From Lachnospiraceae bacterium (lineage in GTDB: Bacteria; Bacillota; Clostridia; Lachnospirales; Lachnospiraceae): a stretch of DNA of 45,510 nucleotides. The translations under genes were made by a program, and so were the position numbers. The notes beneath the pieces were generated by a model. That model had not been told where the DNA came from. It ran no database searches and worked only from the letters and a program-made list of their open reading frames with translations. The stretch's first letter is position 1. Every line of letters starts with the position of its first letter. Below are positions 3,972 to 29,498 of the stretch, piece after piece. The stretch lies in assembly GCA_014804605.1 (NCBI GenBank), contig JAAUZM010000005.1:127619-173128 (forward strand). Reading direction: 5' to 3'.

Positions 3972-3994
3972 AATTTCAACAATAAAAATGGAGA

Positions 3995-4160
3995 TTGATA
4001 GAGGTTGCGTTTTTCATCAGTAGGAGTTTGGATGTTGCAGACACAGGTGAAGAGTTTCGAAAGGGGAAGACGCCGAAAGTGAGAGTTATCTGCGGATTCT
4101 CATCTTGGGCATACAGTTAAGAGCTGTATGACTGTCATCGAATCGATGGGGCGCTATCAG
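3995..4160 (+). ncRNA. Lysine riboswitch (L box)
   Basis: The P1 stem is formed by GATAGAGGTTGCG (3997-4009) with GCGCTATC (4151-4158). Between them lie typical L-box landmarks: CAGTAG, GGGGAAGACGCCGAAAGTG, CTTGGGCATAC and the GACTGTCATCGAATCGATGGGG arm. This aptamer binds lysine and in Firmicutes lies upstream of lysine synthesis or transport genes, which fits dapA directly downstream. A terminator follows, so control by premature termination at high lysine is expected. The 358-bp gap before dapA is filled by promoter, aptamer and terminator. Confidence 0.9.
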
Positions 4161-4173
4161 GTAAGTTAGAGTT

Positions 4174-24600: not shown

Positions 24601-27444
24601 ATGATTGATTTAGAAAAACTGAATCCCATACTGGAAGGTTACAAAGCGTACTTTCCAAACCATTGGAATGATGAAAAGTACAAATGGGAAGCCGTCAAAC
24701 ATTTTCAGGATCACTGGAACATAGATGCTGAGAATTTTGGCGAGATGTTTAAGCTGGCAACAGATAAGACCTTTAATCTTCTGGCATCCGGCTATGCTTA
24801 TCCACGAGGAATGATCATGAACTTTGCTAAAGCAGATGATGAAGCTACCAGAGCGATGTTCTGGCACCTTTATGATGAATCAAAGGATCTGGCTGAAAGA
24901 GTGGATGCATTCCAGACCGCATCAGAAGAGCTTCGAGTAAAATATGATGACGGTACCTGGAGAAATCATTATCAGAATACCAATGCGATAAGCACATATC
25001 TTTGGCTCAGGTATCCGGACAAATATTATATCTACAAGTATGAGCTGCTCCGCGCTGCTGCAAGGGAATTAGAATCGGAATATATGCCTAAGAAAAATGG
25101 AGCTGTTGAGAGTCTGACGGGTGGCTTTCAGATGTATGATGAAATCTGCAATGCCATTAAAGCAGATCCTGATATCAGGGATATGATTCAGACTGCTATG
25201 ACAGCGAGCTGTTATCCGGATCCGGAAATGAAGACAGCAACAATTGATGTGGGATTCTATCTGGGGAGATTTTATCTGAGCGAACAGGATGCCGATAAGG
25301 AAGAAGATGAATGGTTTCCTAAAGATTATTCTCCGGAATTGGGTGTTGATGACTGGATCGAGCTTTTGAATGACAGTTCGATATTTACTATAAGCAGTCT
25401 TCAGATTATGAAGCGAATGAAGGATTATGGTGGAGCGGCAACATGCAAACAGCTTTCGGTTAAGTATGGTGGGAAACCTCATTTTTATAATGGCGAATCA
25501 TGGTCTTTGGCGCAGAGAGTAGCAAAGAAAACCGGCTGTCCGGTTATGATCAGAGATACAGATGATTCTAAATGGATGCCGATTCTGTATGTCAGCAGAA
25601 AAGCAGACAAGGCACCTAATGGTGCATACATCTGGAAACTTAGAGACGAACTTGCAGAAGCTTTGGATAAGGTGGATTTAAATGAGATTGATTTATATGT
25701 CGATAATTCACCGGCAATATGGAAAATAAGTCATGGTTCTATATCGGATAATAACAAAATTATATTTGAAGGCAGACAGGTTGTTACAGTACGTAGCACA
25801 ACAAAAGCAAAAGCGACGGCTAAAGTATCCCAAGGCGAGAATTTCATGGACGGTATAAAGAAAGGGGATTACTTCTATCTTTGCTATGGAAACAGCATTA
25901 GGCTATTGGGACAGTTCGTTGCCGACAAGGCTGTTTTAAATCCTGAAATGGCAGATGGATGGTATGAGAGAGAATATCGTCTCATAAAAGAATCCAAAGA
26001 TACATCTGCATACAAGGGCATTCAGAAATGGTGGACACCAAATGATAATTCAACTTGTATAAAAGTAGAGTCTGAGGATAAGCCTTTGTTTGAAGACTCT
26101 ATCTTGAAGCCTTATTTTGAAATGACTTTGGATGAATTGCTTGGCGATGAAAGCCAGAATCAGGGATACTGGTGGCTGACAGCCAATCCTAAGATTTGGA
26201 GCTTTTCTGATATTAAGATAGGCGAAGAACAGAGCTATACGCTGTATAACGAGAACGGAAATAAGCGAAGAATATTCCAGAACTTCCTGAATGCGAAGGT
26301 TGGAGATATTGTCATTGGATACGAGGCAAATCCTGTAAAGAAGGTTGTAGCTATCGCAAGGATTACACAGGCGAATGACGGGAAAGCAATATATTTTGAA
26401 AAGGTCGAAGGCCTGACAACACCTATCGAATATCTGGCTCTTAAGGAGTGTCCGGAGTTGGAAAAGATGGAATTTTTCAAGCAGCCGAATGGCAGTCTCT
26501 TTAAACTGACAAAAGGCGAATATGCTTTCATCATGGATATTATTCGTGATGAGAATCCACTGCAGAAACCGGATGCTATTATTCAGAAATATACAAAGGA
26601 AGATTTCCTCAGCAAGGTATATATGACGAAGGAACGGTTTGATGTTCTGGAGGCGCTTCTTAGAAATAAGATGAATGTGATCCTGCAAGGTGCTCCGGGA
26701 GTTGGTAAGACCTTTACGGCCAAGAAACTTGCGTATGCAATGATGGGAGAGGTTGATGATTCCAGAATTGAAATGGTTCAGTTCCATCAGAATTATTCCT
26801 ATGAGGATTTTATCATGGGATATCGACCGGATGGAGCTGACTTTAAGCTGACTGATGGCATTTTCTATAAGTTCTGTCAGACGGCTGCGAATCATCCTGA
26901 TAAGGAATATTTCTTCATTATTGATGAGATTAACCGTGGAAATATGAGCAAGAATTTTGGCGAATTGCTCATGCTTATTGAGAAGGATTACAGAGGGACA
27001 AAAGCAACTCTGGCATACAATGGAATGCCGTTCTCTGTTCCAGAGAATCTGTTCATTATAGGTATGATGAATACGGCAGATCGAAGCCTTGCGATGATTG
27101 ATTATGCGCTTCGAAGAAGATTTAGTTTCTTTGAGATGGAGCCCGGATTCAATTCGGAAGGATTCACAAATTATCAGAAGGCGCTTGGAAATGAGACCTT
27201 TAATGCCCTTATTGATCAGATTAAGCTTTTAAATAAAAAAATTGCTGAAGATAAATCACTGGGACGCGGTTTCCAGATTGGGCATAGCTATTTCTGTGGC
27301 AGAGAGGAACTGGGATGTATCGATGAGTGGATGCGGTCTGTAGTTGAGTTTGATATTCTGCCGATGCTGGGTGAATATTGGTTTGATGAGCCGGATAAGC
27401 TAACACGATGGGAAAAGAATTTACGTGGGGTGTTTGATGACTAA
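24601..27444 (+). CDS. mcrB: McrB-type AAA+ restriction protein with EVE domain
   Basis: A 947-residue protein. Residues 1-380 are an N-terminal region of unknown type, about 400-510 a segment that could be a further modified-base reader fold, and about 521-660 an EVE domain (YWWLTANPKIWSF, VIGYEANPVKKVVAIARI). EVE domains read modified bases. The AAA+ motor has Walker A GAPGVGKT (about 697-704), Walker B FFIIDEINRGN (771-781) and the McrB-type motif MNTADRSLAMIDYALRRRF (823-841). Such proteins power translocation for a McrC nuclease. It overlaps mcrC by 8 bp. GGAAGGAG precedes the start. The region is AT-rich compared with its neighbours. Confidence 0.88.
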   Translation: MIDLEKLNPILEGYKAYFPNHWNDEKYKWEAVKHFQDHWNIDAENFGEMFKLATDKTFNLLASGYAYPRGMIMNFAKADDEATRAMFWHLYDESKDLAERVDAFQTASEELRVKYDDGTWRNHYQNTNAISTYLWLRYPDKYYIYKYELLRAAARELESEYMPKKNGAVESLTGGFQMYDEICNAIKADPDIRDMIQTAMTASCYPDPEMKTATIDVGFYLGRFYLSEQDADKEEDEWFPKDYSPELGVDDWIELLNDSSIFTISSLQIMKRMKDYGGAATCKQLSVKYGGKPHFYNGESWSLAQRVAKKTGCPVMIRDTDDSKWMPILYVSRKADKAPNGAYIWKLRDELAEALDKVDLNEIDLYVDNSPAIWKISHGSISDNNKIIFEGRQVVTVRSTTKAKATAKVSQGENFMDGIKKGDYFYLCYGNSIRLLGQFVADKAVLNPEMADGWYEREYRLIKESKDTSAYKGIQKWWTPNDNSTCIKVESEDKPLFEDSILKPYFEMTLDELLGDESQNQGYWWLTANPKIWSFSDIKIGEEQSYTLYNENGNKRRIFQNFLNAKVGDIVIGYEANPVKKVVAIARITQANDGKAIYFEKVEGLTTPIEYLALKECPELEKMEFFKQPNGSLFKLTKGEYAFIMDIIRDENPLQKPDAIIQKYTKEDFLSKVYMTKERFDVLEALLRNKMNVILQGAPGVGKTFTAKKLAYAMMGEVDDSRIEMVQFHQNYSYEDFIMGYRPDGADFKLTDGIFYKFCQTAANHPDKEYFFIIDEINRGNMSKNFGELLMLIEKDYRGTKATLAYNGMPFSVPENLFIIGMMNTADRSLAMIDYALRRRFSFFEMEPGFNSEGFTNYQKALGNETFNALIDQIKLLNKKIAEDKSLGRGFQIGHSYFCGREELGCIDEWMRSVVEFDILPMLGEYWFDEPDKLTRWEKNLRGVFDD

Positions 27445-28561
27445 GGATAAAAGCATATTTATAAAAAATATATATTATATGCTTTCCTATGCTTTTCAGA
27501 TTCTGAAGCAATCGAATTATGATGAGGTTGCTTCAGAAAAATTTGACAAAGCACAGGATCTTTTTGCGGCAATTCTTAGCAAGGGTATAGCTCAGCAGCT
27601 GAAGCAGGGGCTGTTTCGTGAGTATGTTACCAAGAATGAAACACTGCCTGTGATGCGTGGAAAGCTGGATATGCCGAATACGATACGTAACCAGATTCAG
27701 AGAAAACAGAAGCTGGCATGTGAATTTGATGAGCTGTCTGAGGATAACCTGTTTAATCAGATTCTTAAGGCCACAATTCATTTTCTGATTATAGATGATG
27801 GTGTAGATTCAAAACGTAAGAGTACGCTTAAAAAACTTCTGGTTTTCTTTGATGGCATACAACAGCTGGAACCGTCAGAGATTCAGTGGAGCCGACTGCA
27901 TTATCAGAGAAATAATAAGAACTATGAGCTGTTGATGAATATCTGTTATTTTGTACTGGACGGGATGCTTCAGACAACAGAGAAAGGCGAATACAAAATG
28001 ACGGCTTTCTCTGATGACCATATGGCTAGGCTTTATGAGAAATTCATTTTGGAATATTATCATCAGCATCATACATATTTTTCTGAGGTTAAGGCAGGAC
28101 AGGTCAAATGGAATCTGGTCGGTGATAACAGTGAGTCTATGATGCGATTTCTTCCGGTTATGCAGACAGACATTATGCTCCGATTGAATGAACGGATCCT
28201 TATTATAGATGCAAAGTATTATGGGCGAACATTGCAGACGCGGTTCGATAAGTATTCACTGCATTCCGGTAACATATATCAGATATTTACCTATGTGAAA
28301 AATCAGGATAAGGATAATACCGGAAACGTGGCGGGGCTTCTGCTATATGCAAAGACAGACGAAGAAATCACGCCGGATTGCACTTTAAATATGGGCGGTA
28401 ATCAGATAGGTGCAAAGACGTTGGACTTGAATAAAGAGTTTTCATTGATAGCTGCTCAGTTGGATAAGATTGCTGATGATTTTTTTCAACCGCAATTACC
28501 AAAAGCAAGCTATAGGGAGAATGAGATGGCACAAATCATTGTTTTAGGGCAACAATATTGA
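27437..28561 (+). CDS. mcrC: McrC-type restriction endonuclease subunit
   Basis: A 374-residue McrC-like protein, the nuclease partner of the McrB-type motor. N-terminal FIKNIYYMLSYAFQILKQ and LPVMRGKLDMPNTIRNQI are typical of the 5-methylcytosine restriction McrC family. The PD-(D/E)xK core is visible as D245 (TDIMLRL), followed by LIIDAKYYG with D258 and K260. The C-terminal helices include FDKYSLHSGNIYQIFTYVKN. The start at 27437 (ATGACTAA) overlaps the mcrB stop by 8 bp, indicating translational coupling. An upstream start at 27425 exists but has no better support. Together they form a type IV-like restriction system. Confidence 0.9.
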   Translation: MTKDKSIFIKNIYYMLSYAFQILKQSNYDEVASEKFDKAQDLFAAILSKGIAQQLKQGLFREYVTKNETLPVMRGKLDMPNTIRNQIQRKQKLACEFDELSEDNLFNQILKATIHFLIIDDGVDSKRKSTLKKLLVFFDGIQQLEPSEIQWSRLHYQRNNKNYELLMNICYFVLDGMLQTTEKGEYKMTAFSDDHMARLYEKFILEYYHQHHTYFSEVKAGQVKWNLVGDNSESMMRFLPVMQTDIMLRLNERILIIDAKYYGRTLQTRFDKYSLHSGNIYQIFTYVKNQDKDNTGNVAGLLLYAKTDEEITPDCTLNMGGNQIGAKTLDLNKEFSLIAAQLDKIADDFFQPQLPKASYRENEMAQIIVLGQQY

Positions 28562-28830: not shown

Positions 28831-29331
28831 TCAATTTGGATAATAATTTTTAGCAGCTTCTTCAAGCAACTTGAAATCGCATGAAGATTTAACAAGTCCA
28901 TGGTCTATGCCGGCAATAACCGTGTTATATGTATCTTCGGCCATTTTTCGTATATCGCTTTCAATGGAATTACAGTATACCCATTGGCGACGGAGGAATT
29001 CCCTGCGGCTGGGCGTTTCTTTCGAAAAATCGCGACGTGTAATGTATTTGTCATCAACCGGAAACATATAGTTAAATCTAAGCGAACCTTTGATAGGATT
29101 GAACTTATCATCATTTAATTGAATTAATAAATTGTTATCTTGCTTAGTTTTGTAAGAAGATATAGGTACATAGTATTTAAAACTATTGATTTCCATAACC
29201 ACGCCACAGACCATCTTCTTCTCATTTTGGTATTCTATGTCAGGTACGCGTGTAAAACCACGATTTGCGATTTCTGACGTTTTTAGATATCTTACATAGT
29301 CTACATCTACATCGTAAAAGAATAGATTCAT
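28831..29331 (-). CDS. toxN: ToxN/AbiQ-family endoribonuclease toxin of a type III toxin-antitoxin system
   Basis: A 166-residue protein fitting the ToxN/AbiQ fold: NLFFYDVDVDYVRYLKTSE at the N terminus, GVVMEINSFKYYVPISSYK with the SSxK active-site region (residues 58-61, corresponding to TSPK in ToxN), RFNYMFPV and the C-terminal CDFKLLEEAAKNY (compare ToxN CNFSLLEEKY). ToxN cleaves RNA and is neutralised by repeat RNAs from its own operon; AbiQ aborts phage infection. Just upstream are the required RNA repeats and terminator (29343-29449). AGGAG lies before the start ATG at 29331. It is AT-rich and in an island with McrBC. The function is inferred from family and architecture. Confidence 0.85.
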   Translation of the reverse strand: MNLFFYDVDVDYVRYLKTSEIANRGFTRVPDIEYQNEKKMVCGVVMEINSFKYYVPISSYKTKQDNNLLIQLNDDKFNPIKGSLRFNYMFPVDDKYITRRDFSKETPSRREFLRRQWVYCNSIESDIRKMAEDTYNTVIAGIDHGLVKSSCDFKLLEEAAKNYYPN

Positions 29332-29342
29332 AAATTTCTCCT

Positions 29343-29379
29343 AAAAAGTAATGAGTAAGGAAGAATATCCTTACTCATT
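29343..29379 (-). terminator. Terminator between antitoxin repeats and toxin gene
   Basis: On the minus strand AATGAGTAAGGA pairs with TCCTTACTCATT (12 bp, 29379-29368 with 29361-29350, 6-nt loop), then CTTTTTAG. In type III systems such a hairpin keeps antitoxin RNA in excess and lets some transcripts through to the toxin. Confidence 0.85.
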
Positions 29380-29381
29380 CA

Positions 29382-29449
29382 TCATAATTCGCCCTTCATG
29401 GTGGCGGAACACCAGTCATAATTCACCTTTAAGGTAGTGGAACACCTAG
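29382..29449 (-). ncRNA. Type III antitoxin RNA: two 34-bp tandem repeats
   Basis: Two head-to-tail copies (29449-29416, then 29415-29382). Both begin near GGTGTTCC and end GAATTATGA. The middle differs, yet a short stem is kept: CACT/GGTG in the distal copy and CGCC/GGCG in the proximal one. They lie between a promoter and the terminator ahead of the ToxN-like gene. Known ToxI and antiQ RNAs are tandem repeats of about 35 nt, so the size fits; only two units are present here. Confidence 0.82.
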
Positions 29450-29468
29450 GAAGCTTTTTCCTACTTAT

Positions 29469-29498
29469 ATATTATGTGTAATTTTCCGTTTTTGTCAA
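29469..29498 (-). promoter_or_regulatory. Promoter of the type III toxin-antitoxin operon
   Basis: On the minus strand TTGACA (29498-29493) is followed after 17-18 bp by ATAATA/TAATAT (29475-29469). Transcription would begin about 12 bp before the first antitoxin repeat. Confidence 0.8.

What the first reader, a model, noticed from the sequence alone, without database searches (positions are those of the whole stretch)
29382..29449. Antitoxin repeats covary: different sequence, same stem
Seen: the two 34-bp units differ at several middle positions, but the stem CACT/GGTG in one becomes CGCC/GGCG in the other. The two inner pair changes (A-U to G-C, U-G to C-G) keep pairing. GGTGTTCC and GAATTATGA ends are constant. 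This is what selection on a pseudoknot-forming RNA would give, and it could mean each unit still binds toxin. One unit is one base longer in the loop.
Basis: partly seen in the sequence, partly recalled or inferred. Interest (0 to 1): 0.7.

Follow-up and report, generated by a model that had tools for sequence, protein, structure and literature searches.

The report
Antitoxin RNA repeats with swapped-but-matching stems
A gut-type bacterium carries a toxin gene held in check by two slightly different copies of a small knotted RNA; comparison with relatives shows that each copy keeps its knot although its letters change, and that the copies stay different from each other, in a fixed order, across species, which surveys looking for identical repeats can miss.

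Summary
On the minus strand, window 29447-29380 holds two non-identical ToxI-type repeats. They lie upstream of a terminator and a ToxN/AbiQ-family toxin gene (28831-29331, PF13958): a type III toxin-antitoxin locus. The stem CACU/GGUG (unit 1) against CGCC/GGCG (unit 2) is as described, and the other stem also carries a double change (A-U to U-A). From these two units alone the effect is weak (chance 0.05-0.07).

Relatives settle it. With units found by stem 1 only, stem 2 is fully Watson-Crick in 108 of 113 units, against a mean of 34 after permutation. Within non-identical arrays, swapping stem-2 strands between sister units works in 1 of 98 cases; cognate strands pair in 96 of 98.

The repeats are not homogenised. 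In three clades whose units all differ, every unit resembles same-position units of other species more than its own sisters (74 of 74). In 53 of 77 arrays the last repeat's stem 2 is unlike all earlier ones, and it is never less G+C-rich (47 richer, 30 equal, 0 poorer).

The kind is known; the ordered, 3'-stiffened array is a variant I found no description of. A specialised role for each position is inferred, not shown.

The parts
29469..29498 (-). sigma-70-type promoter, TTGACA - 18 nt - TAATAT (or 16 nt - CATAAT)
   Evidence: 10-11 of 12 consensus bases; similar boxes stand at the same place in the relatives' upstream regions
29448..29462 (-). 5' leader hairpin AGGAA-AAAGC-TTCCT directly before unit 1
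   Evidence: leader folds at -3.2 kcal/mol (z -1.3); 65 of 77 family leaders fold at -2 kcal/mol or lower, median z -1.98; in L038 the stem is AAGAG/CTCTT instead of AGGAA/TTCCT
29415..29447 (-). antitoxin repeat unit 1: S1 AGGU/ACCU, S2 CAC(U)/(G)GUG, L2 of 5 nt, tail AATTATGAC
   Evidence: same-position conservation in relatives
29380..29414 (-). antitoxin repeat unit 2: S1 UGGU/ACCA, S2 CGC(C)/(G)GCG, L2 of 6 nt, tail AATTATGATG
   Evidence: median 97% identical at the same position in relatives
29343..29379 (-). Rho-independent terminator between antitoxin and toxin (12-pair stem, T run)
   Evidence: 1 found, 0.1 expected in shuffles
29338..29342 (-). ribosome-binding site AGGAG
   Evidence: sequence
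28831..29331 (-). ToxN/AbiQ-family endoribonuclease toxin, 166 aa
   Evidence: PF13958 ToxN_toxin E 7.7e-33, score 114 against cut-off 25; AbiQ E 3.9e-31; AbiQ 4glk E 1.9e-11; ToxN 2xd0 E 3.2e-8; residues S58, S59, K61 align with catalytic Thr52, Ser53, Lys55

Best explanation
This is a type III (ToxIN/AbiQ-family) toxin-antitoxin locus. SHOWN BY SEQUENCE: one promoter, a leader hairpin, two antitoxin repeats, an intrinsic terminator, then the toxin gene; each repeat can form an H-type pseudoknot (stem S1, positions 1-4 with 13-16; stem S2, positions 9-12 with the 3' strand), and both stems are kept by compensatory changes between sister repeats and between species. Each repeat position is conserved as its own lineage rather than homogenised. 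INFERRED from characterised ToxIN systems: the toxin cuts the precursor RNA between repeats, each repeat binds head-to-tail between two toxin molecules and blocks their active sites, and the terminator keeps antitoxin in excess over toxin; when RNA supply stops (for example in phage infection or loss of the locus) the toxin is freed. INFERRED, less secure: the repeats are kept non-identical and in order, with the strongest S2 at the 3' end, because divergence prevents slippage and fixes repeat number and/or because the terminator-proximal unit has a role of its own.
For: Toxin family. Promoter and terminator. S1-only detection in 46 arrays (0.0 shuffled loci give such a chain): S2 is 3/3 Watson-Crick in 108 of 113 units, against a permuted mean of 34.4 (maximum 50 in 500) and 1-4 when the 3' strand is taken at other offsets. 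Within-array strand swaps pair in 1 of 98, cognate strands in 96 of 98. Window-clade alignment: 98.6% of cells paired, covariation score 0.302 against 0.196 +/- 0.027 shuffled, 0/500; slid versions at most 64%. Two-sided changes that keep pairing at S2 pairs 1, 2, 3: 49, 79, 9, with none broken (these units were picked with S2, so one search is the unbiased test). Same-position units are closer than sister units in 20/20, 42/42 and 12/12 cases. Last unit's S2 G+C: 47 higher, 30 equal, 0 lower, against about 19 higher and 26 lower with order permuted; 13 to 0 over 25 distinct order signatures. Identical-toxin E. coli plasmids with near-identical repeats carry 3, 4 or 5 full repeats, whereas the window clade always has 2. 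Literature on processing, hexamer and repeat number: PMC8860590, PMC5086642, PMC5772629.
Against: No experiment here: pseudoknot folding, processing, binding and toxicity are not measured. Thermodynamic folding of the whole transcript prefers local hairpins (that program cannot draw pseudoknots). In L003 unit 1 is strongly diverged (CAU/AUG, G.U in S1, long L2), so one unit may be dispensable. One clade (TGC>TGC>CAC) has first and second units that are alike (7 of 18), so non-homogenisation is not universal. The polar S2 trend has only about five or six independent origins and the Pectobacterium array runs the other way (TGC to TAC).
Confidence: 0.92

Rival explanations
1. Structure-only neutral divergence: the units are interchangeable pseudoknots that drift apart by compensatory changes because such short chromosomal arrays are rarely homogenised; order and polarity mean nothing.
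For: All changes keep pairing, which is all that structural constraint requires; L113 (CAC unit present three times) and L064 (only TGC and CGC) show that units can be gained or lost.
Against: Same-position units are kept at a median of 91-97% identity between species in the window and TGC>CAC>CGC clades, whose toxins are only 69-76% identical; of 3-unit arrays with one odd S2 the odd one is last in 15, first in 1, middle in 2 (tallied from the signatures); the last S2 is never weaker. Pure drift predicts neither position-specific conservation nor asymmetry.
Confidence: 0.3
2. Anti-recombination: divergence is selected because identical 34-37 bp tandem repeats gain and lose copies, and repeat number is critical for function.
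For: Three plasmids with the identical toxin protein WP_000675351.1 have 3, 4 and 5 near-identical repeats; in AbiQ adding or deleting a repeat lowers phage resistance (PMC5086642); window-clade arrays all have 2 units.
Against: Does not predict why the last unit is the odd one or why its S2 is the strongest; AbiQ itself and E. faecium have identical repeats; heterogeneous arrays also change in number on occasion (L113, L064).
Confidence: 0.35
3. The repeats form simple local hairpins (positions 3-5 with 9-11) or serve as DNA sites, not pseudoknots.
For: The MFE of the full transcript shows local hairpins.
Against: The rival hairpin is Watson-Crick in only 49 of 193 units (154 if G.U is allowed), against 191 for S2, although these units were picked with S2; the unbiased S1-only set gives 108 of 113 for S2. 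DNA-site selection would not produce matched changes about 13 bases apart.
Confidence: 0.03
4. Chance similarity within one window.
For: The two units alone reach only 0.05-0.07.
Against: 77 arrays in the family, same register, 0 shuffled loci with an S1 chain.
Confidence: 0.01

Closest known systems
ToxIN of Pectobacterium atrosepticum pECA1039 (type III TA)
   Same: Toxin family, promoter-repeats-terminator-toxin order, S1 (AGGU/ACCU identical to unit 1), G at position 5, S2 at positions 9-11, repeat length 36 against 33-35
   Different: Five near-identical full repeats plus a divergent last one, against two non-identical repeats; Pa S2 is UGC/GCA with a 6-nt L2. The Pa 'half repeat' at the end also fits a pseudoknot with UUAC/GUAA.
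AbiQ/antiQ of Lactococcus lactis pSRQ900
   Same: Closest solved toxin (4glk, E 1.9e-11); about 3 repeats of 35 nt before a terminator and toxin
   Different: antiQ repeats are essentially identical to each other and of unrelated sequence
Fusobacterium polymorphum pKKCOM1330A ToxN locus (L140)
   Same: ToxN-family toxin; last repeat differs with a compensated S2 (CUC/GAG in three, CAC/GUG in the last)
   Different: First three repeats identical; different clade
CptIN of Eubacterium rectale (Lachnospiraceae)
   Same: Type III TA of related bacteria with pseudoknot antitoxin, two genetic repeats (PMC4627078)
   Different: Different toxin family, 45-nt repeats, heterotetramer

Membership tests
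Type III toxin-antitoxin, ToxIN/AbiQ family | ToxN/AbiQ-family toxin with the catalytic Thr/Ser52, Ser53, Lys55 | tested here: met
   PF13958 E 7.7e-33; AbiQ model E 3.9e-31; S58, S59, K61 at the catalytic positions (alignment; residues named in PMC8860590)
Type III toxin-antitoxin, ToxIN/AbiQ family | -35/-10 promoter upstream of the repeats | tested here: met
   TTGACA/TAATAT
Type III toxin-antitoxin, ToxIN/AbiQ family | Tandem array of repeats | tested here: met
   Two units 33 bases apart. They are not identical: Tandem Repeats Finder reports nothing here at score 50
Type III toxin-antitoxin, ToxIN/AbiQ family | Rho-independent terminator between repeats and toxin | tested here: met
   29350-29379 stem plus T run
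Type III toxin-antitoxin, ToxIN/AbiQ family | Repeat folds as H-type pseudoknot (S1, S2) | tested here: met
   By covariation only; no probing or structure
Type III toxin-antitoxin, ToxIN/AbiQ family | Toxin processes the repeat RNA and is inhibited by it | not testable with these tools
   Needs kill/rescue and processing assays
Type III toxin-antitoxin, ToxIN/AbiQ family | Repeats near-identical to each other (as in Pa, AbiQ, E. faecium; usual, not a defining requirement) | tested here: not met
   Units 1 and 2 about 76% identical in the clade; 57 of 77 arrays have more than one S2 type
An Rfam family | Match to a curated covariance model | tested here: inconclusive
   No match, but the pECA1039 ToxI control does not match either
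CptIN or TenpIN families | CptN/TenpN toxin | tested here: not met
   The toxin matches ToxN_toxin PF13958 and no other Pfam family

The most novel reading that the evidence does not exclude
In Bacillota ToxIN loci the antitoxin is an ordered set of distinct pseudoknots rather than a repeat: each position is under its own purifying selection, and the terminator-proximal unit, with the strongest S2, has a separate job (for example protecting the precursor's 3' end, tuning read-through into the toxin gene, or nucleating the toxin-RNA ring), so that repeats are not interchangeable.
Probability: 0.33. Interest if true: 0.66.

Novelty: new variant of a known kind. Interest (0 to 1): 0.5.

Why it matters
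It supplies comparative support for the ToxI pseudoknot, known before from ToxIN crystal structures, in one clear setting: sister repeats of the same RNA serve as natural compensatory double mutants. It suggests that repeats described through a consensus sequence may be positionally distinct, that repeat-finder-based surveys undercount such loci (Tandem Repeats Finder at the published settings finds 14 of 36 arrays in which every unit has its own S2, against 18 of 20 homogeneous ones), and that the last 'half repeat' of the paradigm P. atrosepticum antitoxin may itself be a pseudoknot unit. All three are directly testable.

Tried and rejected
Rfam: no ToxI match in the window, but the positive control also failed, so uninformative. 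Viral contigs: no relative of the toxin and no copy of either unit, and only chance-level DNA matches in phages, so there is no sign of a phage mimic of this antitoxin; three phage records do carry ToxN relatives. Simple-hairpin rival rejected. Single-strand folding cannot represent pseudoknots and was not used as evidence. Idea that homogenisation explains the repeats: rejected for the window clade (20/20) but possible for the TGC>TGC>CAC clade (7/18). Idea that the locus moves with its McrBC neighbour: only L032 of the ten clade loci checked shared neighbours, and there it was the AraC and PTS genes that matched, so there is no fixed context. Pairing statistics from the full descriptor set are partly circular because units were picked by S1 and S2; the S1-only set was made for that reason.

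Full report
WHAT WAS CLAIMED. Two 34-bp repeats at 29382-29449 differ in sequence but keep a stem, as expected of a pseudoknot RNA that binds a toxin.

THE SEQUENCE. Everything lies on the minus strand. Unit 1 (29447-29415) reads AGGT GTTC CAC T ACCT TAAAG GTG AATTATGAC; unit 2 (29414-29380) reads TGGT GTTC CGC C ACCA TGAAGG GCG AATTATGATG. The described changes are exact. One more two-sided change is present in the other stem (A1-U16 to U1-A16). GGTGTTCCNCYACC occurs twice in the window, with 0 expected. The two units alone are only weak evidence: six substitutions placed at random keep all eight pairs in 4.8% of trials, and random bases at the six observed positions in 6.6%.

THE LOCUS. The repeats follow a TTGACA/TAATAT promoter and precede a 12-pair terminator and a 166-aa protein that is ToxN/AbiQ by Pfam (E 7.7e-33), PADLOC (E 3.9e-31) and solved relatives (AbiQ 4glk E 1.9e-11, ToxN 2xd0 E 3.2e-8). 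Ser58, Ser59 and Lys61 align with the catalytic Thr52, Ser53 and Lys55 named in PMC8860590. This is the architecture of type III systems (PMC5086642). A short hairpin precedes unit 1; 65 of 77 family leaders fold at -2 kcal/mol or lower (median z -1.98).

RELATIVES. Toxin relatives were fetched from 397 genomes of the family, 392 of the order and the GTDB contig set (76 loci). Nine further distinct arrays of the window's own clade (L033-L038, L072, L003, L040) and a near-identical one (L032) all have two units; pairwise toxin identity in this clade has a median of 69% (the lowest value, 27%, comes from toxin sequences fetched incomplete).

COVARIATION. To avoid choosing units by the stem under test, arrays were found by S1 only (46 arrays, 113 units; 0.0 shuffled loci). 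S2 was then 3/3 Watson-Crick in 108 units; permuting the 5' strand among units gave 34.4 on average (maximum 50 in 500), and other offsets gave 1-4. Within arrays that have more than one S2, cognate strands pair in 96 of 98 comparisons and strands swapped between sisters in 1 of 98. The count tool on the window clade gave 98.6% paired cells and a covariation score of 0.302 against 0.196 +/- 0.027, with 0 of 500 shuffles reaching either; every slid version was at or below 64.3% paired. In the full descriptor set (77 arrays, 213 units, partly circular) 59 of 65 non-identical arrays contain a two-sided compensatory difference. On the toxin tree the S2 sequence of the first unit changes at least 15 times and that of the last at least 8 times. 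A rival local hairpin is Watson-Crick in 49 of 193 units against 191 for S2.

EACH POSITION IS ITS OWN LINEAGE. (Clades are named by the three S2 5' letters of each unit in order.) In the window clade, CAC>CGC, unit 1 is a median 94% and unit 2 a median 97% identical between species, but units 1 and 2 only 76% within an array; all 20 units are closer to same-position units of other species than to their sister. The same holds for 42 of 42 units in the TGC>CAC>CGC clade (14 arrays) and 12 of 12 in CTC>CTT>CGC; in TGC>TGC>CAC it holds for only 7 of 18, because the first two units are alike.

POLARITY. In 53 of 77 arrays the last S2 differs from all earlier ones. Among 3-unit arrays with one odd S2 it is the last in 15, the first in 1, the middle in 2 (tallied from the signatures). 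G+C of the last S2 is higher than the mean of the earlier ones in 47 arrays, equal in 30 and lower in none; shuffling unit order gives about 19 higher and 26 lower, and over 25 distinct signatures it is 13 to 0. Judging by eye from the tree, the number of independent origins is only about five or six. In the window the S2 duplex energies are -1.8 (unit 1) and -5.0 kcal/mol (unit 2).

CONTRAST WITH KNOWN ARRAYS. AbiQ and E. faecium have essentially identical repeats. P. atrosepticum and E. coli plasmids have near-identical repeats followed by a divergent last one (AGGT, ATTTAC, T, ACCT, then GTAA), described in the literature as a half repeat ('5.5 repeats', PMC5772629) but able to form S1 and a UUAC/GUAA S2. 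Three plasmids with the same toxin protein hold 3, 4 and 5 full repeats. A Fusobacterium plasmid has three identical units and a last one with CAC/GUG instead of CUC/GAG. Published recognition was manual and verified by Tandem Repeats Finder (PMC8860590); on the 77 arrays those settings find 18 of 20 homogeneous arrays but 14 of 36 in which all units differ, and at a similar setting the program does not report the window array.

HOW IT WORKS. Shown here: genes, signals, stems and covariation. Inferred from PMC8860590, PMC5086642 and PMC5772629: toxin cleaves the precursor, units bind between toxin molecules and occlude the active sites, and the terminator biases expression to antitoxin. Least certain: why the units stay different. 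Anti-slippage explains fixed number (repeat number matters for AbiQ, PMC5086642); a separate role of the last unit explains polarity. They are compatible.

PRIOR WORK. Searches of the open library found consensus-repeat descriptions and structures, and a microbiome survey listing candidate structured RNAs upstream of ToxN in Clostridiales (PMC8040213), but no account of ordered, non-identical repeats. The primary classification papers (Blower et al. 2012 NAR; Short et al. 2013 PNAS; Samson et al. 2013), known to me from memory, were not consulted here, so priority is not established.

VERDICT. Observation confirmed, interpretation supported, system known in kind, array organisation a variant worth an experiment.

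Noticed in passing
L141 (pECA1039) and plasmid loci L143-L146, end of the ToxI array: The terminal 'half repeat' of the paradigm ToxI antitoxin, AGGTGATTTACTACCTTTAAGTAAT, fits a pseudoknot with S2 UUAC/GUAA, a compensated change from UGC/GCA; it is also present in E. coli and Salmonella plasmids.
   Followed up: partly
L143, L144, L145: Same ToxN protein (WP_000675351.1) with 3, 4 and 5 full repeats, differing by single repeat steps: natural repeat-number variation in near-identical arrays.
   Followed up: partly
window 29448-29462 and family leaders: A 5' hairpin directly before the first repeat is found in most relatives, with some stem covariation (AGGAA/TTCCT, AAGAG/CTCTT in L038); possibly a 5' stabiliser of the antitoxin precursor.
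   Followed up: partly
L113 and L064: In the TGC>CAC>CGC clade, L113 has three CAC-type units between TGC and CGC, and L064 has none: end units kept, middle unit variable.
   Followed up: no
L003 unit 1: Strongly diverged first unit (S2 CAU/AUG, G.U in S1, 7-nt L2) next to a conserved second unit: either decaying or re-specialised.
   Followed up: no
own genome G000:C7:75786-76073 (L002) and G000:C5:340441-340755: Two further, distant ToxN-family matches in the same genome; L002 has one ToxI-like unit (TGGT-GAG-TCC-T-ACCG-CAAAGT-GGA) upstream.
   Followed up: no
window 24601-28561: McrBC-like restriction pair (AAA_5 plus EVE domain protein, McrC) converging on the toxin gene; defence neighbourhood.
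   Followed up: no
L141 215-436: A 'hypothetical protein' is annotated across the ToxI repeats of pECA1039, probably a spurious ORF.
   Followed up: no
window 3991-4164: Lysine riboswitch (RF00168, 115 bits).
   Followed up: no
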